Assembly (NCBI GenBank): GCA_913041495.1
Contig: CAJWHT010000024.1
Coordinates: 1 to 42,220 of the forward strand
From: an uncultured Desulfobacteraceae bacterium
Lineage (GTDB): Bacteria; Desulfobacterota; Desulfobacteria; Desulfobacterales; Desulfobacteraceae
Length of the DNA: 42,220 bases
Direction: 5' to 3'
Made by a program: the position numbers and the translations under genes. How positions within the stretch are numbered: position 1 is the first letter of the stretch; each line of letters starts with the position of its first letter. This document shows, one piece after another, positions 26,638-33,071 of the stretch. The notes beneath the pieces were generated by a model. That model saw only the letters and a program-made list of their open reading frames with translations. It had not been told where the DNA came from and searched no databases.

Positions 26638-27969
26638 ATGACGCTTGAACTAACCCTGTTAATCATCTGTCTATTTTTATCCGGCTTTTTTTCGTCCTCG
26701 GAGACCGCTCTTTTTTCCATATCAAAGGTGAAGGCGCTTCACATCGCCAAAGACGGATCAAAAACCGGCCAACTCATCATGGAGATGAAGGAAAACTCCC
26801 ACACCCTGCTGACCACCATACTCATCGGGAACAATCTTGTGAATATCGGTGCCTCCTCCCTGGCTACCGCCCTGGCCATCGCCCATTTTGAATCCAATGC
26901 CGTGGGCATCGCCACCGGTGTGATGACCCTGCTCATCCTGGTGTTCGGAGAGATTTTTCCAAAATCCTTTGCCAATCACAACAACGTGCTGGTGTCCCGG
27001 GCGGTGATTTATCCCCTGTACTGGCTGTCCAGAATTTTCTGGCCCCTGATCTTCATTCTCAACGTCATCCCCAGGCTGCACGGCACCATCGACAATGCCC
27101 AGGAAGCCGTGACCGAAGACGAGCTCATGACCATGGTAGAGGTGGTGGAGGAAGAGGGGGAAATCAAGGAAAAGGAAAAAGAGTACATCACCAATATTTT
27201 TGAATTTGACGATACCTCCTGTTCCGAAATTATGACCCCCAGGGCAGATATGTTCGTCCTGGATATTTCAGAAGAACTCGATATTCAGAGCATTCTGAAA
27301 ACCGGTTTTTCAAGAATCCCCGTCATCAGGGACTATATCGATGAAATTATCGGCATCCTCCATGTAAAAGACCTGTTTGCCGAATTTCAAAAACAGGTGA
27401 CCGGCGGGCAGGATATGCGCGTTATCGATATCCAGAAAATCATGAAAACACCGTATTTCATTCCCGAATCCAAAAAACTGGATTCCCTGCTTCAGGAATT
27501 CAAAAATAAAAAAAGCCATATGGCGGTGGTGGTGGACGAGCACGGCGGCGTCTCCGGTATCGTCACCCTTGAAGATGTGGTTGAGGAAATCTTTGGCGAG
27601 ATCACGGATGAAACCGACCAGAGCACCCAGGATTTCGTCCGGCTCAAAGGTAAAAAATGGCTGGTGGCCGGCCGGGTGGATGTGGATGACCTGAACAAAA
27701 AACTGCCGGAGTTGGGAATTCCCGAATCCGGCAACTATGATACCTTTTCAGGATTTTTCCTTGAACAGATCGAGCGGATTCCGGCCCAGGGCGAATCCAT
27801 CCGCATCAACAACTGGATCATCACTGTCAAGGATATGGACGGCAACCGAATCAAATCCTTTGTGGTCAGATCGGCGGATGAACCCTTAAGTGAGCCGGTA
27901 AAGGCCGTTGCCAGCAGCCGGCCACCAAATAATCCAACTGAAACAACTAAAAATGAGACAGGTTCTTGA
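26638..27969 (+). CDS. CNNM/CorC-HlyC family membrane protein with CBS domains
   Basis: A 443-residue hemolysin-C-like protein. An N-terminal DUF21 membrane domain with about four helices (LTLLIICLFLSGFFSSSETALFSISKVKA onward, including VFGEIFPKSFANHN) is followed by two CBS repeats (from EIMTPRADMFVLD, and MKTPYFIPESKKLDSLLQEF with VVVDEHGGVSGIVTLEDVVEEIFGEI). A C-terminal CorC_HlyC domain carries VAGRVDVDDLNKKL and GFFLEQIERIP. Members of this group are linked to magnesium and cobalt handling, but the substrate cannot be read from sequence. The last 40 residues are polar and look disordered. It has its own promoter and lies just ahead of the pheA leader. Confidence 0.88.
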   Translation: MTLELTLLIICLFLSGFFSSSETALFSISKVKALHIAKDGSKTGQLIMEMKENSHTLLTTILIGNNLVNIGASSLATALAIAHFESNAVGIATGVMTLLILVFGEIFPKSFANHNNVLVSRAVIYPLYWLSRIFWPLIFILNVIPRLHGTIDNAQEAVTEDELMTMVEVVEEEGEIKEKEKEYITNIFEFDDTSCSEIMTPRADMFVLDISEELDIQSILKTGFSRIPVIRDYIDEIIGILHVKDLFAEFQKQVTGGQDMRVIDIQKIMKTPYFIPESKKLDSLLQEFKNKKSHMAVVVDEHGGVSGIVTLEDVVEEIFGEITDETDQSTQDFVRLKGKKWLVAGRVDVDDLNKKLPELGIPESGNYDTFSGFFLEQIERIPAQGESIRINNWIITVKDMDGNRIKSFVVRSADEPLSEPVKAVASSRPPNNPTETTKNETGS

Positions 27970-27992
27970 CATATTCAAAACAGGCGTATAAG
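27966..27992 (+). promoter_or_regulatory. Candidate promoter for the pheA leader
   Basis: TTGACA (27966-27971, overlapping the stop of the upstream gene) and TATAAG (27987-27992) are spaced by 15 bases, a little short. Transcription would start near 28000, just before the leader-peptide ribosome site. Readthrough from the upstream gene is an alternative source of transcript. Confidence 0.4.
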
Positions 27993-28029
27993 GTTCCTTG
28001 TGTTTTATAAAAACGGGAACCAACATCAG

Positions 28030-28101
28030 ATGAACTATACCATTGACAGCTATTTTTATTTTTTTAAGCCCTTTTTTAAGGGCTGTACCTGTCTGTGGTG
28101 A
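28030..28101 (+). CDS. Putative aromatic-rich leader peptide of the pheA-aro operon
   Basis: An open frame of 23 codons ahead of pheA, too short for ordinary gene finding. It starts with ATG at 28030 (GGGAA at 28015-28019 may serve as ribosome site) and ends at TGA 28099-28101. The peptide is MNYTIDSYFYFFKPFF followed by KGCTCLW: five Phe, three Tyr and one Trp in 23 residues, with the core YFYFFKPFF encoded at 28051-28077. Phe/Tyr-rich leader peptides of this sort (compare E. coli PheL, rich in Phe) sense aminoacyl-tRNA supply by ribosome stalling. It stands in front of a gene for Phe synthesis, with a terminator between. The peptide itself is probably not functional after release. No experimental support is available to me. 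Confidence 0.75.
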   Translation: MNYTIDSYFYFFKPFFKGCTCLW

Positions 28102-28168
28102 ATTTTAAGTAAACCCGTCCCAAAAACAAAAATGAACCGCAGCAGGCACCGCCTGAGGCGGTTTTTTT
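28067..28168 (+). promoter_or_regulatory. Ribosome-mediated transcription attenuator of pheA-aroE-aroA-aroK-aroC
   Basis: Four segments can form two exclusive structures. Segment 1, AGCCCTT (28067-28073, inside the Lys-Pro-Phe codons), pairs with segment 2, AAGGGCT (28078-28084). Segment 2 extended, GGCTGTACCTGT (28081-28092), pairs with segment 3, GCAGGCACCGCC (28142-28153), at 10 of 12 positions including one G-U. Segment 3 is also the left arm of the terminator (28135-28163). A ribosome stalled on the Phe/Tyr codons would cover segment 1 and free segment 2 to block the terminator. A ribosome reaching the stop at 28099 would cover segment 2 and let termination happen. Pairings are worked out by eye, without energies. 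Confidence 0.7.
28135..28168 (+). terminator. Intrinsic terminator inside the pheA leader
   Basis: Outer stem AACCGC (28135-28140) with GCGGTT (28158-28163), a symmetric AG/AG internal loop, inner stem CAGGC (28143-28147) with GCCTG (28151-28155) and a 3-base loop, then T at 28162-28168. It ends 30 bases before the pheA start, leaving no room for a normal promoter after it, so pheA transcripts must pass it. Confidence 0.85.
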
Positions 28169-28198
28169 AGTTTTAGGACCTGATTATGAGGCATTGCC

Positions 28199-29305
28199 AT
28201 GGATCAAAATGATCACCCAGACAACCCCCTGGCCCCTTTAAGAGATGAGATCGACAGGATTGATGCCCGTATCCTGGAACTGATCAACCAGCGTCTGCGC
28301 ATCGGCGAACAGGTGGGTGCCGTAAAGAAAAAAGAGGGAAGCCAGATCCTTGACCGGGTCAGGGAACGGATGGTAATCGAAAACCTGTCCAGTATCAACC
28401 AGGGGCCTGCGGATAAAGAACTTATTCAATATATTTTCAACGTCATCATCACGGCCACCCGGGAAATTCAAAAGCCCAAAACCATTGCCTACTTAGGCCC
28501 CAAAGCCAGCTATACGCATATTGCGGCCTTAAATCATTTCAAGCATTCCGGGCGGTTTGTTCAGCAGCCCAACCTGTTTGACATTTTCAGGGATGTGGAA
28601 AGAGGCCAGAGCCATTTCGGTGTCGTTCCCGTGGAAAACTCCATTGAAGGAGCGGTGAACCATACCCTGGATCTGTTCGGCGAGTTCAACCTGAACATTA
28701 TCTCCGAACACTATGAACCGGTATCCCACGATCTTCTATCCATTACCGGTGAACCCTCGGATGTAAAAACCATCTATTCCCATCCCCAGGCCATTGCCCA
28801 ATGCAAGGGCTGGTTGAAGAAAAAATTTCCCCATGTGGACGTCATGGAAACCACATCCACGTCCAAAGCGGCCCAGATGGCCTCCGTGGATGAAAGCGTG
28901 GCGGCCATTGCCAGCCAGAAAGCCGCCCATATATACGAGTTGCTGCCCGTGGAATCCAAAATCCAGGACCGCAGCGGCAACGTGACCCGGTTTCTTGTCA
29001 TCGGCAAAGACCAGCCCCCGAAAACCGGACGGGATAAGACCAGCATCATGTTCGCCACATCACACAGCCCCGGTGCCCTTTTCAAAGCCCTGGCTCCCAT
29101 AGACAGGGCAGGGCTGAACATGCTCAAACTGGAATCCAGACCCACCCGTCACCAGAACTGGAGTTATTACTTTTTCATGGACATTGCAGGCCATATCCAG
29201 GATGATCTTGTTGCCCGGACCATCGAGGAAATCAAGGCCGTTACCCTGTCCCTGAAAACCTTGGGATCTTACCCGGTCTTTAGCAAAGAGGAGCCGCTGT
29301 CATGA
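28199..29305 (+). CDS. pheA: Bifunctional chorismate mutase / prephenate dehydratase
   Basis: A 368-residue P-protein that turns chorismate into prephenate and then phenylpyruvate for phenylalanine. Residues 10-95 are an AroQ-type mutase (LRDEIDRIDARILELINQRLRI, with VKKKEGSQILDRVRE). Residues about 95-275 are the dehydratase, with VVPVENSIEGAVN and the catalytic NVTRF segment. Residues about 285-355 are an ACT domain with the GALF and ESRP motifs that bind Phe for feedback inhibition. It is first in a five-gene operon and overlaps aroE by 4 bases (ATGA). Control appears double: attenuation in the leader and allosteric inhibition at the ACT domain. Confidence 0.96.
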   Translation: MDQNDHPDNPLAPLRDEIDRIDARILELINQRLRIGEQVGAVKKKEGSQILDRVRERMVIENLSSINQGPADKELIQYIFNVIITATREIQKPKTIAYLGPKASYTHIAALNHFKHSGRFVQQPNLFDIFRDVERGQSHFGVVPVENSIEGAVNHTLDLFGEFNLNIISEHYEPVSHDLLSITGEPSDVKTIYSHPQAIAQCKGWLKKKFPHVDVMETTSTSKAAQMASVDESVAAIASQKAAHIYELLPVESKIQDRSGNVTRFLVIGKDQPPKTGRDKTSIMFATSHSPGALFKALAPIDRAGLNMLKLESRPTRHQNWSYYFFMDIAGHIQDDLVARTIEEIKAVTLSLKTLGSYPVFSKEEPLS

Positions 29306-30129
29306 TTACCTCCACCACCTGCCTATACTGTGTGCTGGGAAACCCGGTGGTCCATTCCAAAAGCCCCCTGATTCATAACGCTGCCTTCAAGGACTTGGGA
29401 ATCAATGCGGTATATCTGGCATTTTCACCGGAGAATACCAAGGCTGCCGTCCGGACCACCATGGATGCCATCCGGACCCTGAATATCGGCGGTGCCTCGG
29501 TGACCATCCCGTTCAAGGAAGTCATCATGCCATACCTTGATAGAATCGACACCATGGCCCAAACTATCGGGGCGGTAAATACCATCGTCAACCGGGAAGG
29601 GCGCCTCACCGGATATAATACGGATTGCGAGGCTGCCATTGCACCGCTGCGGCCCTTTGGCATCAAAGGCAAGACCGTATGCATAGTCGGCGCAGGAGGC
29701 GCGGCGCGGGCCGTTGCCCACGGTATTGCCGCCGAAGGGGGTAAGGTGGTTGTCGTCAATCGAACCCAGGAAAAGGGCAGGGCGCTTGCCGGCCGGGTAG
29801 GTGGCACCTTTGTTCCTGTCGACCGAGCCGCAGAGGTTGAGGCCCAGGTGGTGATTAACACCACAAGCCTCGGTATGGCACCGGATACCCAGACCCTGTC
29901 CTTCCCAGAATCGGCCCTTCATCCCGGCACCGTGGTCATGGACGTGGTCTACACCCCCATGGACACCTGCCTGCTCAAAACAGCCCGTGCCAAAGGGTGC
30001 ACCACCATCGACGGCCTGTCCATGTTTGTGGCCCAGGCCGCAGCCCAGTTCACCCTTTGGACCGGACAACACCCTGATATCGAACTCATGAAACGAACTG
30101 TACTCGAAAACGCTTTAGGAGACCTGTAA
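29302..30129 (+). CDS. aroE: Shikimate dehydrogenase
   Basis: A 275-residue NADP-dependent shikimate dehydrogenase (3-dehydroshikimate to shikimate). The substrate domain shows GNPVVHSKSPLIHNAAF and NIGGASVTIPFK, with the catalytic lysine at the end of that segment; GYNTDCEAA carries the conserved aspartate. The nucleotide domain has VGAGGAARAVAH and the NADP-type VVNRTQEKG, and a TIDGLSMFVAQAAAQF helix closes the protein. The ATG overlaps the pheA stop and its own TAA overlaps the aroA ATG by one base, so translation is coupled on both sides. Confidence 0.95.
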   Translation: MITSTTCLYCVLGNPVVHSKSPLIHNAAFKDLGINAVYLAFSPENTKAAVRTTMDAIRTLNIGGASVTIPFKEVIMPYLDRIDTMAQTIGAVNTIVNREGRLTGYNTDCEAAIAPLRPFGIKGKTVCIVGAGGAARAVAHGIAAEGGKVVVVNRTQEKGRALAGRVGGTFVPVDRAAEVEAQVVINTTSLGMAPDTQTLSFPESALHPGTVVMDVVYTPMDTCLLKTARAKGCTTIDGLSMFVAQAAAQFTLWTGQHPDIELMKRTVLENALGDL

Positions 30130-31397
30130 TGAAACCCCTGACACCCAAACGACTGTCAGACCAAACTGTCCGGATTCCCGGCTCAAAGAGCATTTCCCAC
30201 CGGATGATGATCTGCGCCGCCCTTGCAGAAGGCAAATCCGTCATTCACAACGCACTGAAAAGCGAAGATCTCTCCCTGACCTGCCAGACCCTGTCTTATA
30301 TGGGTGCCATGATACATGAGGTGTCCGACACCGCCACCGAAGTTAAGGGGTTTGCCGGACGGCCGAAACCCTGGGCCGAGCCCATTTATCTGGGCAATTC
30401 GGGAACCTCCATGCGGCTTTTAGCCGGTATCGCCGCCCTGGGGGACACCGCCTATACCCTCACCGGGGATGAACGGATGTGCCAGCGCCCAATGAACGAA
30501 CTTCTGGACGCCCTGTCCCGGATTCAGATCACCGCCCACGCGAGAAATGAGGCGGGGACACCGCCGGTGGTGATCCAGGGCGGCAGCCGTCTCGGCGGCA
30601 GCACCGTCCTGGACTGCTCCAAGTCCAGCCAGTACCTGTCCGCACTTCTCATGGCAGGGGCCTTGTTCGACCAGGGACTTGAGATTGAACTTACCGGCCC
30701 GCCGGTATCCGTGCCCTATATCAACCTCACCCTTGACGTGATGAGACAATACAAGGTGTCTGCGGAACGCATCTCTGATACCCTGTACCGGGTGGCGGGC
30801 AACCAGAGCTATGAAGCCGGCACCCGGATCGTGGAGCCGGATCTTTCCAATGCCGGCTACTTCTGGGCCGCAGGCGCTGTCACCGGGCAAAAAATAGGTG
30901 TGGATAACATCCGGCCGGACTCCCTGCAGGGCGATCTGAACCAGATCAATATCCTGGAGCAGATGGGCTGCCGGGTTGAACGTGTTGGTCAGGTGATATC
31001 GGTCCGGGGAGGCGATCTCAAAGGGGTGGATGTGGACATGTCCGACACCCCGGATGCGGTGCCCGCCATTGCCGTGACCGCGGCATTTGCAAAAGGCACC
31101 ACCCGGATCAGGAACATTGCCCACTTAAGGGTCAAGGAATGTGACCGGATTGACGCGGTCTGTTCCCAGCTTGAAAAAATGGGCATCCATGTAGCCCAGG
31201 GAGATGACTGGATGGAGGTTACCGGCGGTACCCCGAAAGGGGCATTCATTTCCACCTTCAACGACCACAGGATCGCCATGTCATTTTCCGTGGCAGGCCT
31301 CAGGGTGGCAGGGATGGAAATCGAGAATCCCTCCTGCGTGGAAAAATCCTTTCCCACCTTCTGGGAGATATATGACGGCCTGAAGGAAACTAAATAA
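30129..31397 (+). CDS. aroA: 3-phosphoshikimate 1-carboxyvinyltransferase (EPSP synthase)
   Basis: A 422-residue EPSP synthase joining phosphoenolpyruvate to shikimate-3-phosphate. Landmarks are PGSKSISHRMMICAALAEG (Lys20 and Arg25 region), LGNSGTSMRLLAG, SSQYLSALLMAG, DMSDTPDAVPAIAV and RVKECDRIDAV, then FNDHRIAMSFSVAGL near the end. The glyphosate-contact segment reads NSGTSMR: the glycine matching Gly96 of E. coli is kept, while the following proline site is leucine. The start codon shares one base with the aroE stop (TAATG), and the aroK start shares one base with its own stop. Confidence 0.96.
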   Translation: MKPLTPKRLSDQTVRIPGSKSISHRMMICAALAEGKSVIHNALKSEDLSLTCQTLSYMGAMIHEVSDTATEVKGFAGRPKPWAEPIYLGNSGTSMRLLAGIAALGDTAYTLTGDERMCQRPMNELLDALSRIQITAHARNEAGTPPVVIQGGSRLGGSTVLDCSKSSQYLSALLMAGALFDQGLEIELTGPPVSVPYINLTLDVMRQYKVSAERISDTLYRVAGNQSYEAGTRIVEPDLSNAGYFWAAGAVTGQKIGVDNIRPDSLQGDLNQINILEQMGCRVERVGQVISVRGGDLKGVDVDMSDTPDAVPAIAVTAAFAKGTTRIRNIAHLRVKECDRIDAVCSQLEKMGIHVAQGDDWMEVTGGTPKGAFISTFNDHRIAMSFSVAGLRVAGMEIENPSCVEKSFPTFWEIYDGLKETK

Positions 31398-31933
31398 TGA
31401 CAATAGGGCCCATTTTTCTGATCGGATACCGGTGCACCGGTAAGACCACCACAGGCAAATACCTTGCCAAGTTGCTTGGCCGCCCGTTCATGGACACGGA
31501 CCGGCTGCTTGAATCTTCTGCCGGAACCACCATCACCCGGATGGTTGACGCCCGGGGCTGGGACTACTTCAGGCGCGAGGAAACCCGCACACTGCTGACC
31601 CTTGACCTGTCAAGCGGTCCAGTGGTGGCCACCGGCGGCGGTATTATTCTGGCCCAGGAAAATCGCAGGTTTATCCGCCGGAACGGAATAGCGGTCTGGT
31701 TGACCGCCGATGCGGCCACCATCATGGACCGGCTGGCATCCGACACCGCAACGGCGGATTCAAGACCTGTTTTCACGGATGCCTCCCTTGAACAAGAGAC
31801 AAAAAACACGTTGAACACCAGGGAGCCGCTGTATCGCGAACTTGCCTCACTTACCATCAATACGGCTGACCACACCCCGGAAGCCGCGGCTGAAACTATC
31901 AAAAGAGAACTTATAAAGGAAACGCAGAAATGA
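31397..31933 (+). CDS. aroK: Shikimate kinase
   Basis: A 178-residue shikimate kinase. The P-loop is GYRCTGKTT (residues 10-18), the shikimate-binding aspartate is in FMDTDRLLE, the arginine segment is FRREETRTL, and VVATGGGIIL gives the conserved glycine loop; the lid carries SRPVF. Length is typical. The gene is joined to aroA (TAATG) and overlaps aroC by 4 bases (ATGA). The enzyme supplies shikimate-3-phosphate to the EPSP synthase encoded just upstream. Confidence 0.94.
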   Translation: MTIGPIFLIGYRCTGKTTTGKYLAKLLGRPFMDTDRLLESSAGTTITRMVDARGWDYFRREETRTLLTLDLSSGPVVATGGGIILAQENRRFIRRNGIAVWLTADAATIMDRLASDTATADSRPVFTDASLEQETKNTLNTREPLYRELASLTINTADHTPEAAAETIKRELIKETQK

Positions 31934-32988
31934 ACGGTTCTAGCTTTGGAAAAGCCTTTCAAATAACAACCTTTGGTGAATCCCACGGCAAGGCGCTGGG
32001 CGTGGTTATCCAGGGCTGTCCTGCCGGCATCCCCATTGACGAGGCAAGTATCCAAAAAGCCCTGGACAAACGAAAACCAGGCTCAGGCCCCGCTTCCACC
32101 AAAAGAAAGGAACCGGACATCCCCCGCATCCTGTCCGGCACCTTTGAGGATAAAACCACGGGCACCCCTATCATGATTCTCATTGAAAACAAGGATGCCA
32201 AATCCAGGTCCTACACAGACATTGCAGATGTGTTCAGGCCGGGACACGGTGATTTCACCTACCTGAAAAAATACGGTATCCGGGATTACAGGGGCGGGGG
32301 CAGGGCGTCTGCCAGGGAAACAGCCGCCAGGGTCGCCGCAGGGGCCGTTGCCCAACTGGTACTTGATCCCCACGCCGTATCAATTGAAAGCCACACCCTG
32401 GCCCTTGGCGGTGTGCACGCCACCACGTTTGACAGGCAGGTGATAGAAGAAAATCCGTTTCGCACCGCAGACCCTGAAGCTGCCCAGGCCATGGCAAAAC
32501 GGGTGGAACAGGTCAAGGCGGAAGGAGACTCCCTGGGGGGGATTGTCGAAATCCGTGCGGCCAATGTGCCGCCGGGACTTGGGGATCCCGTGTTTGACAA
32601 GCTGGACGGCGACATTGCCAAGGCCATGATGAGCATCGGTGCGGTGAAAGCCGTGGAAATCGGTGCCGGGGTTGAGGCCTCATCTCTCAAAGGCTCCGAA
32701 AACAACGATGCCATGACCCTGGACGGATTTAAATCCAACAATGCCGGCGGTATACTGGCGGGTATCTCCAATGGCGAGGATATCGTTGTCCGGGTTCATG
32801 TGAAACCCATTCCCTCAATTTTAAAATCCCAGGATACCTTAAAAGAAAGCGGTGAAGCCACCACCATATCCACCAAGGGAAGGCATGACATCTGCGCCAT
32901 ACCGCGGATAAACAAGGTCTGTGAGGCCATGCTTGCACTGGTACTTGCAGATCATTTGCTTCGGCAAAAATGCCAGGTTCAACTGTGA
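31930..32988 (+). CDS. aroC: Chorismate synthase, second copy (aromatic operon)
   Basis: A 352-residue chorismate synthase at the end of the aro operon. Landmarks are FGKAFQITTFGESHGKALG, DKRKPGSGPASTKRKEPD, YRGGGRASARETAARVAAGA, NNAGGILAGISNGEDIVVR and the C-terminal STKGRHDICAIPRINKVCEAM. The core motifs match those of the first copy at 6.1 kb, but the proteins are clearly divergent in the segments between, so this is not a recent duplication. The start overlaps the aroK stop (ATGA). A strong hairpin terminator follows about 40 bases after the stop. Confidence 0.95.
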   Translation: MNGSSFGKAFQITTFGESHGKALGVVIQGCPAGIPIDEASIQKALDKRKPGSGPASTKRKEPDIPRILSGTFEDKTTGTPIMILIENKDAKSRSYTDIADVFRPGHGDFTYLKKYGIRDYRGGGRASARETAARVAAGAVAQLVLDPHAVSIESHTLALGGVHATTFDRQVIEENPFRTADPEAAQAMAKRVEQVKAEGDSLGGIVEIRAANVPPGLGDPVFDKLDGDIAKAMMSIGAVKAVEIGAGVEASSLKGSENNDAMTLDGFKSNNAGGILAGISNGEDIVVRVHVKPIPSILKSQDTLKESGEATTISTKGRHDICAIPRINKVCEAMLALVLADHLLRQKCQVQL

Positions 32989-33030
32989 TGGTTTAAGGAA
33001 TTTAAGAAGACAAATAAAGGTAAAAAAAAA

Positions 33031-33071
33031 GATGCTGTGCCGGCGGAACCGCCGGCACAGCATCTTTTTTT
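33031..33071. terminator. Strong bidirectional terminator after aroC
   Basis: A perfect 16-bp stem, GATGCTGTGCCGGCGG (33031-33046) with its complement at 33049-33064, has nine A before it and seven T after it. It can serve the aro operon on the plus strand and the small gene at 33082-33396 on the minus strand. Confidence 0.93.

What the first reader, a model, noticed from the sequence alone, without database searches (positions are those of the whole stretch)
27999..28198. Complete Phe/Tyr-codon attenuator in front of pheA-aroE-aroA-aroK-aroC
The sequence shows a 23-codon frame (28030-28101) for a peptide with core YFYFFKPFF, a terminator with a T run (28135-28168), and two competing pairings: 28067-28073 with 28078-28084, and 28081-28092 with 28142-28153, the second overlapping the terminator arm. 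The terminator ends 30 bases before pheA, so transcripts must pass it. This matches the textbook E. coli pheL/trpL design but controls a combined shikimate-phenylalanine operon, in a lineage where I do not recall such leaders being described. Mixed Tyr and Phe codons suggest sensing of both amino acids.
Basis: partly seen in the sequence, partly recalled or inferred. Interest (0 to 1): 0.85.

Follow-up and report, generated by a model that had tools for sequence, protein, structure and literature searches.

The report
Phe/Tyr attenuator before chorismate-phenylalanine operon
Upstream of the genes for making chorismate and phenylalanine, this sulfate-reducer relative carries an RNA switch that seems to measure phenylalanine and tyrosine supply by how fast a ribosome reads a tiny Phe/Tyr-rich gene, and similar switches with different codon mixes sit before other aromatic amino acid genes in the same genome.

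Summary
At 28030-28101 lies a 23-codon frame (MNYTIDSYFYFFKPFFKGCTCLW), followed by a terminator (28136-28168) and two competing pairings, 30 nt before pheA. No other such frame exists in the 42 kb, and shuffling does not produce one with a terminator. In the family, a leader lies within 420 nt upstream of pheA in 40 of 53 genomes (4 more farther up; 9 none found). Across 37 distinct leaders, terminator and antiterminator are kept with compensatory changes. The same segment 2 RNA is read in two frames in different genera. Best reading: ribosome-mediated attenuation of pheL/trpL type.

A covariance model found a second such leader in the window's genome, before class I DAHP synthase (Phe, Tyr, one Trp codon). 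Inspection added a Phe-only leader before a DAHP-synthase/prephenate-dehydratase fusion and a Trp leader before trpE. Tyr is in the core of 3 of 29 distinct fusion leaders against 34 of 34 pheA leaders. This suggests a regulon in which each leader reads the amino acids its enzymes feed. The mechanism is known; the leader family matched nothing in Rfam and was not found in the open-access papers searched. Nothing is tested experimentally.

The parts
27966..27992 (+). putative promoter TTGACA (27966-27971), 15-nt spacer, TATAAG (27987-27992); predicted start near 28000
   Evidence: consensus match; TTGAC[ATG]-N15-TATA-like pattern upstream of 32 of 37 distinct leaders, in 29 of them with the second element within 60 nt of the leader ATG (no shuffle control run). 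The built-in scan allows only 16-18 nt spacers and missed it
28030..28101 (+). leader peptide gene, 23 codons plus TGA, MNYTIDSYFYFFKPFFKGCTCLW, rich in Phe and Tyr codons
   Evidence: F+Y concentrated in this frame over the 37 distinct leaders (279 against 114 and 147 in the other frames)
28067..28084 (+). segment 1:2 hairpin (28067-28073 with 28078-28084), overlapping the later Phe codons
   Evidence: minimum-energy fold; nascent-RNA folding
28088..28099 (+). segment 2, CCUGUCUGUGGU, overlaps the last codons and the stop of the leader gene
   Evidence: kept as RNA but read in two frames among relatives
28136..28146 (+). segment 3, ACCGCAGCAGG, pairs either with segment 2 (antiterminator) or with segment 4 (terminator)
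28152..28168 (+). segment 4 CCUGAGGCGGU and T-run: 3' half of the intrinsic terminator
28199..29305 (+). pheA: chorismate mutase-prephenate dehydratase-ACT, first gene of the operon
   Evidence: Pfam CM_2, PDT, ACT; NCBIfam prephenate dehydratase over its cut-off
29302..30129 (+). aroE, shikimate dehydrogenase
30129..31397 (+). aroA, 3-phosphoshikimate 1-carboxyvinyltransferase
31397..31933 (+). aroK/aroL, shikimate kinase (best model AroL, 160.3 bits, just under its cut-off of 161)
31930..32988 (+). aroC, chorismate synthase

Best explanation
The region is a ribosome-mediated transcription attenuator for the pheA-aroE-aroA-aroK-aroC operon. RNA polymerase starts near 28000 and a ribosome begins the 23-codon leader. 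If Tyr-tRNA and Phe-tRNA are plentiful, the ribosome reaches the UGA at 28099-28101, covers segment 2, and segment 3 pairs with segment 4 to form the terminator, so transcription stops near 28168. If either tRNA is short of its amino acid, the ribosome stalls in the run TAT TTT TAT TTT TTT (28051-28065), masks segment 1, and leaves segment 2 free to pair with segment 3 before segment 4 is made, so polymerase reads on into the operon. Without translation, the finished RNA folds with segment 2 tied up upstream and the terminator formed. Shown: the parts, their conservation and covariation. Inferred: promoter use, translation of the leader, stalling, and the response to Phe and Tyr. In the same genome leaders also sit before DAHP synthase (Phe/Tyr/Trp codons), a DAHPS-PDT fusion (Phe only) and trpE (Trp), so this is one member of an aromatic attenuation regulon.
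For: (1) The anatomy is complete and unique in the window; 0 of 3000 shuffles match. (2) 54 of 105 pheA loci examined carry leader plus terminator by script, 37 distinct sequences. (3) Terminator, 37 leaders: 89.5% of cells paired, 4 pairs with changes on both sides, covariation 0.124 against 0.075 in shuffles, 0 of 500 as high; on 71 wider leaders 129 cells changed on both sides against 56 in shuffles, 0 of 500. (4) Antiterminator: 90.3% paired, covariation 0.098 against 0.070, 0 of 500; own segment 2:3 duplexes average -19.2 kcal/mol against -17.08 (sd 0.37) for permuted partners, 0 of 10000 permutations as low. (5) Segment 2 is read in two frames, 18 and 19 of 37 leaders, so it is conserved as RNA, while F+Y codons concentrate in frame 0 (279/114/147) and the other frames hold stops in 29 and 34 of 37. 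(6) Nascent-chain folding with the ribosome and everything 5' of it masked: stalled at Tyr/Phe codons 28036-28063, P(antiterminator) is 0.97-1.00 for chain ends 28147-28160 and 0.63-0.99 at 28168; at the stop codon, or with no ribosome, P(terminator) is 1.00 at 28168. (7) Leader codon content differs by target gene.
Against: No expression data. With only 15 nt on each side of the stalled ribosome masked and the whole leader at equilibrium, the terminator wins in every state (P 0.79-0.999), so the switch needs kinetic order and masking of upstream RNA. In untranslated RNA the antiterminator is briefly favoured when the chain ends at 28147 or 28151 (P 0.68 and 0.90) before the terminator takes over. 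The Shine-Dalgarno-like sequence before 28030 is weak by eye and an in-frame GTG at 28000 exists. The number of pairs with two-sided change is reached by 13 of 500 (terminator) and 39 of 500 (antiterminator) shuffles in the 37-leader set, and by 319 of 500 in the 71-leader set. Of 53 family genomes with pheA 9 have no leader found, 2 of them because the contig starts inside pheA. In Desulfobacter-type leaders the 1:2 structure is weak.
Confidence: 0.92

Rival explanations
1. The hairpin is simply the terminator of the upstream CNNM-family gene (or a constitutive 5' terminator) and the aromatic frame is a by-product of a U-rich stretch.
For: The upstream gene ends at 27969, about 170 nt before the hairpin, and TTT/TAT codons are expected in U-rich RNA.
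Against: F+Y codons are frame-specific and include TTC/TAC (42 of 279); the antiterminator co-varies; the same leader family sits before other aromatic genes elsewhere in the same genomes.
Confidence: 0.03
2. A ligand- or tRNA-binding element (riboswitch, T-box) or a protein-directed antiterminator controls the same terminator.
For: Terminator and competing hairpins fit any attenuator class.
Against: No Rfam family at gathering scores in the window; in five leader loci at E<=1 only five sRNA or miRNA models, all below their gathering scores, and no leader, riboswitch or T-box family. The conserved parts visible in the alignments are codons plus switching stems.
Confidence: 0.03
3. It is an attenuator, but senses Phe only (Tyr codons being tolerated substitutes), or senses general translation speed.
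For: Phe codons outnumber Tyr codons 171 to 86 in the 34 distinct pheA leader peptides; the first gene makes Phe.
Against: Tyr lies in the core of 34 of 34 distinct pheA leaders but only 3 of 29 distinct fusion leaders, so Tyr is not a free substitute; the operon's chorismate also feeds Tyr.
Confidence: 0.2
4. The terminated leader RNA or its peptide also acts in trans, as reported for the trp leader peptide of Sinorhizobium meliloti.
For: Precedent only: PMC7298713 (start of abstract seen in the listings).
Against: The C-terminus of the peptide changes frame between genera, which argues against a conserved peptide function; trans action was not tested.
Confidence: 0.05

Closest known systems
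E. coli pheL-pheA attenuator (recalled; that pheA is attenuated in E. coli and other gammaproteobacteria is stated in a passage of PMC5343134)
   Same: Short Phe-rich leader gene, 1:2 / 2:3 / 3:4 pairing scheme, terminator just before a chorismate mutase-prephenate dehydratase gene.
   Different: Mixed Phe and Tyr codons, a five-gene chorismate-plus-Phe operon instead of pheA alone, no match to any Rfam family, different phylum.
trpL and his/thr/ilv leader attenuators (recalled)
   Same: Stop codon placed at segment 2 so a ribosome that finishes the peptide favours the terminator; leaders reading more than one amino acid are known for ilv and thr (recalled).
   Different: Phe+Tyr combination, and one leader family shared by several aromatic genes of one genome.
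Actinobacterial RNA regulatory elements of amino acid genes (PMC1262725, start of abstract in listing) and the Actinobacteria 'pheA' motif (PMC2864571, one passage)
   Same: Leader-based or structured-RNA control of amino acid genes outside gammaproteobacteria.
   Different: Different phylum; the 'pheA' motif paper holds no occurrence of 'leader peptide' in its main text.

Membership tests
Ribosome-mediated (pheL/trpL-type) transcription attenuator | Short leader gene rich in codons for the amino acid(s) the operon makes | tested here: met
Ribosome-mediated (pheL/trpL-type) transcription attenuator | Intrinsic terminator between leader gene and first structural gene | tested here: met
   hairpin in 37 of 37 distinct leaders (the leaders were selected by script for a terminator-like end); covariation
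Ribosome-mediated (pheL/trpL-type) transcription attenuator | Antiterminator that shares one arm with the terminator | tested here: met
Ribosome-mediated (pheL/trpL-type) transcription attenuator | 1:2 hairpin overlapping the control codons, and stop codon placed so a finishing ribosome covers segment 2 | tested here: met
   window; in some relatives the hairpin is weak
Ribosome-mediated (pheL/trpL-type) transcription attenuator | Promoter upstream of the leader | tested here: inconclusive
   TTGACA-N15-TATA pattern in 32 of 37, near the leader in 29; consensus match only, no control
Ribosome-mediated (pheL/trpL-type) transcription attenuator | Leader is translated; termination depends on charging of the cognate tRNA | not testable with these tools
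   needs RNA-seq, ribosome profiling or reporter assays
Rfam leader families (Phe leader and others) | Match to the curated covariance model | tested here: not met
   no match in the window at gathering scores; no leader family at E<=1 in five leader loci, the window's among them
T-box | T-box covariance model match | tested here: not met

The most novel reading that the evidence does not exclude
Desulfobacterota use a shared attenuator family as a codon-coded aromatic regulon: each operon carries a leader whose codon mix equals the set of end products its enzymes feed. That means Phe only for the DAHPS-PDT fusion, Phe+Tyr for pheA-aroEAKC, Phe+Tyr+Trp for the entry enzymes DAHP or ADH synthase, and Trp only for trpE, so the cell allocates carbon along the branched pathway by ribosome speed on four small genes.
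Probability: 0.5. Interest if true: 0.75.

Novelty: new member of a known kind. Interest (0 to 1): 0.58.

Why it matters
Leader-peptide attenuation is best known from a few model groups (recalled). Here it appears as a shared control of aromatic amino acid synthesis in a large anaerobic lineage in which few of the well-studied proteobacterial regulators occur (a passage of PMC5343134, says Deltaproteobacteria have orthologues of only five of the transcription factors it studied; which five I did not see). The differing codon mixes within one genome give a natural test of whether leader codons encode which amino acids an operon listens to.

Tried and rejected
Equilibrium folding of the full leader with only the ribosome footprint masked gave the terminator in all states; kept as evidence against, and followed by nascent-chain folding with all upstream RNA masked. 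A first pair count used a structure string on wrong columns and is meaningless; redone. Reading minus-strand genome loci as if re-oriented gave false 'no leader' rows; corrected. Of the 75 named loci I used 56; the 19 dropped are matches that do not include the start of pheA or distant lineages. Trp codons as evidence of Trp sensing: in the six pheA leaders with a core Trp the TGG lies at the start of a predicted or possible hairpin arm, so Trp (12 of 25 DAHPS cores against 6 of 34 pheA cores, p 0.02) may be structural; I treat it as weak. The Fisher p-values ignore shared ancestry. CM-TyrA (C12) has no aromatic leader frame in the 600 nt examined. Literature: ten searches listed no report of these leaders; only 20 of 29 papers were listed. 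A recalled DOI for the 2004 comparative attenuation paper is not held. Lopatovskaya et al. 2010, cited in PMC4833913, did not itself appear in an author search. So earlier prediction in print cannot be excluded. Reverse-strand covariance-model hits at the same places are palindrome echoes and were ignored.

Full report
What is there. The window (contig C24 of a 5.77 Mb, 328-contig genome) fits Desulfobacteraceae by its named relatives (lineage of one of them). Between the end of a CNNM/GldE-like gene (26638-27969) and pheA (28199) lie, in order: a promoter-like TTGACA-N15-TATAAG (27966-27992), a 23-codon frame 28030-28101 with peptide MNYTIDSYFYFFKPFFKGCTCLW, and a terminator ending at 28168. 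The operon downstream is pheA (CM, PDT, ACT domains), aroE, aroA, aroK/L, aroC with abutting or overlapping genes.

Check of the observation. The leader RNA folds at z = -4.03.

Relatives. Of the 105, 54 carry a Phe/Tyr-rich ATG frame followed by a terminator-like end, 37 distinct sequences. One further leader, L091, was missed by the script's pattern and one locus is cut by a contig end. Examples: MTITPRYFFFFRYFLSTCLW, MKSDLTDFYFYYFRFFFIGTPCLW (Desulfospira joergensenii), MIFSFNKNFYFSTRFYRKDSLPVDY (Desulfobacter vibrioformis), MFGFFADRYFFYFWFYFRTGLQAVC (Desulfocicer vacuolatum). Of the 51 rows without one, 12 are the six Desulfobacula-like genomes seen from both sources. Others are loci where pheA follows ADH synthase, or pheA genes of more distant lineages in other contexts.

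Structure by comparison. On the 37-leader alignment the terminator has 89.5% of cells paired, 4 pairs with changes on both sides, covariation 0.124 against 0.075 in shuffles (0 of 500 as high). The antiterminator has 90.3%, 3 such pairs, 0.098 against 0.070 (0 of 500). The count of pairs with two-sided change is less extreme (13 and 39 of 500 shuffles reach it). Mean own segment 2:3 duplex energy is lower than in all 10000 partner permutations. All 37 have a terminator hairpin (-11.1 to -26.5 kcal/mol), which is partly built in, since they were picked for a terminator-like end. Segment 2 is read as ...C-L-W-stop (or S-L-W, C-R-W, H-L-W, L-L-W) in 18 leaders and in the ...L-P-V-x-x frame (with variants) in 19, a different frame over the same RNA. 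So segment 2 is conserved as RNA, while the upstream run is conserved as Phe/Tyr codons: F+Y 279 in frame against 114 and 147 in the other frames, which contain stops in 29 and 34 of 37 leaders.

How it should work. Folding the nascent RNA step by step, with the ribosome and all RNA 5' of it masked, a ribosome stalled on codons 28051-28063 gives the antiterminator with P 0.98-1.00 for chain ends 28147-28160 and 0.63-0.99 at 28168. A ribosome at the stop codon gives the terminator (P 1.00 at 28168), as does untranslated RNA, although the latter passes through an antiterminator-rich state at ends 28147 and 28151 (P 0.68 and 0.90). This is the pheL/trpL logic. If only the footprint is masked and the whole RNA is at equilibrium the terminator wins in every state, so the switch depends on the order of synthesis. 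Stalling, translation and promoter use are inferred.

Wider family. A covariance model of the 37 leaders (R1) found hits in 80 of 86 family genomes and 248 of 389 genomes of the class at E<=0.1 (this threshold alone would give some tens of chance hits). From the listed hits, mostly best first, I chose 40 places to fetch; all 40 have an aromatic-rich frame on the spot. The first downstream gene reads as class I DAHP synthase in 17, ADH synthase in 17, pheA in 3, and is unassigned in 3. NCBIfam confirmed DAHPS in L158 and L170 and ADH synthase in L164; the rest are read by eye. A second model from 71 leaders (R2) shows terminator covariation 0.411 against 0.185, 129 two-sided cells against 56 (0 of 500 for both), though the number of pairs with two-sided change is not unusual (319 of 500); this alignment was fitted to the structure and leans to it. 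In the window's own genome R2 gives two strong hits, the window leader (E 4.6e-8) and C315 (E 9.8e-9) before class I DAHP synthase. The 13 other hits have E >= 0.0196; I inspected 5 and none is an aromatic leader. In the phylum sample 103 of 395 genomes match at E<=0.01. Of 26 top loci from other genomes inspected, 25 have an aromatic-rich frame. The downstream gene, where I could name it, is DAHPS of two types, ADH synthase, a shikimate kinase-like gene (below the curated cut-offs), or a binding protein that I read by eye as a branched-chain-type ABC transporter part. The kinase-like and type I-beta DAHPS genes were scanned; the binding protein had no NCBIfam hit at 1e-20 there.

Survey in the family. 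Of 74 genomes with a class I DAHP synthase, 71 have an R2 hit within 420 nt upstream; in one of the other three (G060) a leader frame is there but R2 missed it, and in another (G021) the gene starts at a contig end. Of 53 genomes with a pheA of this type, 40 have a hit within 420 nt, 4 more within 2200 nt, and 9 have none (2 of these start inside pheA at a contig end). 38 genomes have both. 122 of 135 R2 hits at E<=0.001 fall before these genes or the fusion gene below; 13 are unassigned and were not followed up.

A codon code? The own genome also has, found by inspection and not by R2, a Phe-only leader MADTFFFSFGRFFFFRSVHPVLP with terminator and antiterminator before a DAHP synthase-prephenate dehydratase-ACT fusion gene on C149, and a Trp leader MNLASGTRNSTVTRWWCRTSWRRLLQPDVDGG before trpE on C119. 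The C315 leader is MNFCKADRFYFYFWYYFFTGLPALR. In the family I listed 56 genomes with the fusion, the own one included, and obtained upstream regions for 39 others (40 asked); 30 of the 39 show the FGRFFF-type leader. In R2, 7 of the 56 have a hit at the place of this leader. DAHPS leaders were read in 26 genomes. Tyr lies in the 10-residue core of 3 of 29 distinct fusion leaders, 34 of 34 pheA leaders and 25 of 25 DAHPS leaders; Trp in 0, 6 and 12 (Fisher p 1e-14 for Tyr, fusion against pheA, ignoring shared ancestry). Tyr content therefore splits sharply by target. Trp is weak because its TGG tends to lie in a hairpin arm. I propose that each leader reads the amino acids its enzymes feed.

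Losses. Six family genomes (one genus; Desulfobacula-like by their named twins) have pheA behind the CNNM gene with no leader found. One of these (L011/L095) keeps a -35-like element and a terminator but no leader frame, which looks like decay. In G058 the leader lies before ADH synthase, upstream of an AroB-like gene (named by eye) and pheA; G059 looks the same.

Known or new. The mechanism is known. No Rfam family matches. Ten library searches listed no report of these leaders. I saw passages only of PMC2965389, PMC2864571, PMC5343134, PMC545781 and PMC4833913: the first has no occurrence of 'Desulf' or 'phenylalanine', PMC545781 none of 'leader peptide' or 'pheA', PMC5343134 says trp and pheA are under attenuation in E. 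coli and other gammaproteobacteria, and PMC2864571 lists an Actinobacteria 'pheA' motif. I file it as a new member of a known kind, with the shared leader family and its codon partition as the new part.

Noticed in passing
L158 (G000 contig C315, 976-1060 +): Second leader of the same family in the window's genome, MNFCKADRFYFYFWYYFFTGLPALR, 46 nt upstream of class I DAHP synthase.
   Followed up: yes
L108 (G000 contig C149, about 11000-10859, minus strand): Phe-only leader MADTFFFSFGRFFFFRSVHPVLP with strong terminator before a DAHP synthase-prephenate dehydratase-ACT fusion gene; not found by model R2.
   Followed up: yes
L295 (G000 contig C119), upstream of trpE on the minus strand: Trp leader MNLASGTRNSTVTRWWCRTSWRRLLQPDVDGG with repeated GCTGC elements and a terminator.
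   Followed up: partly
window 27966-27992 and upstream of 32 of 37 distinct leaders: Promoter-like TTGACA-TATA pair with a 15-nt spacer, shorter than the usual 17; no control was run.
   Followed up: partly
L222, L229, L235, L234: Phe-rich short frames (e.g. MAVEDITISSTNFFFFD) with similar switching stems before a gene read by eye as a branched-chain-type ABC transporter binding protein: possible aromatic amino acid uptake under attenuation.
   Followed up: no
L011 7884-7933 (also seen as L095): Apparent relic: -35-like element and terminator remain upstream of pheA but the leader frame is gone.
   Followed up: partly
G026 C1 1702730-1704423: Leader lies about 1.6 kb upstream of pheA, as if something had inserted between them.
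   Followed up: no
window 33024-33071: Perfect 20-pair hairpin with T/A runs on both sides between aroC and the convergent minus-strand frame, a likely two-way terminator.
   Followed up: no
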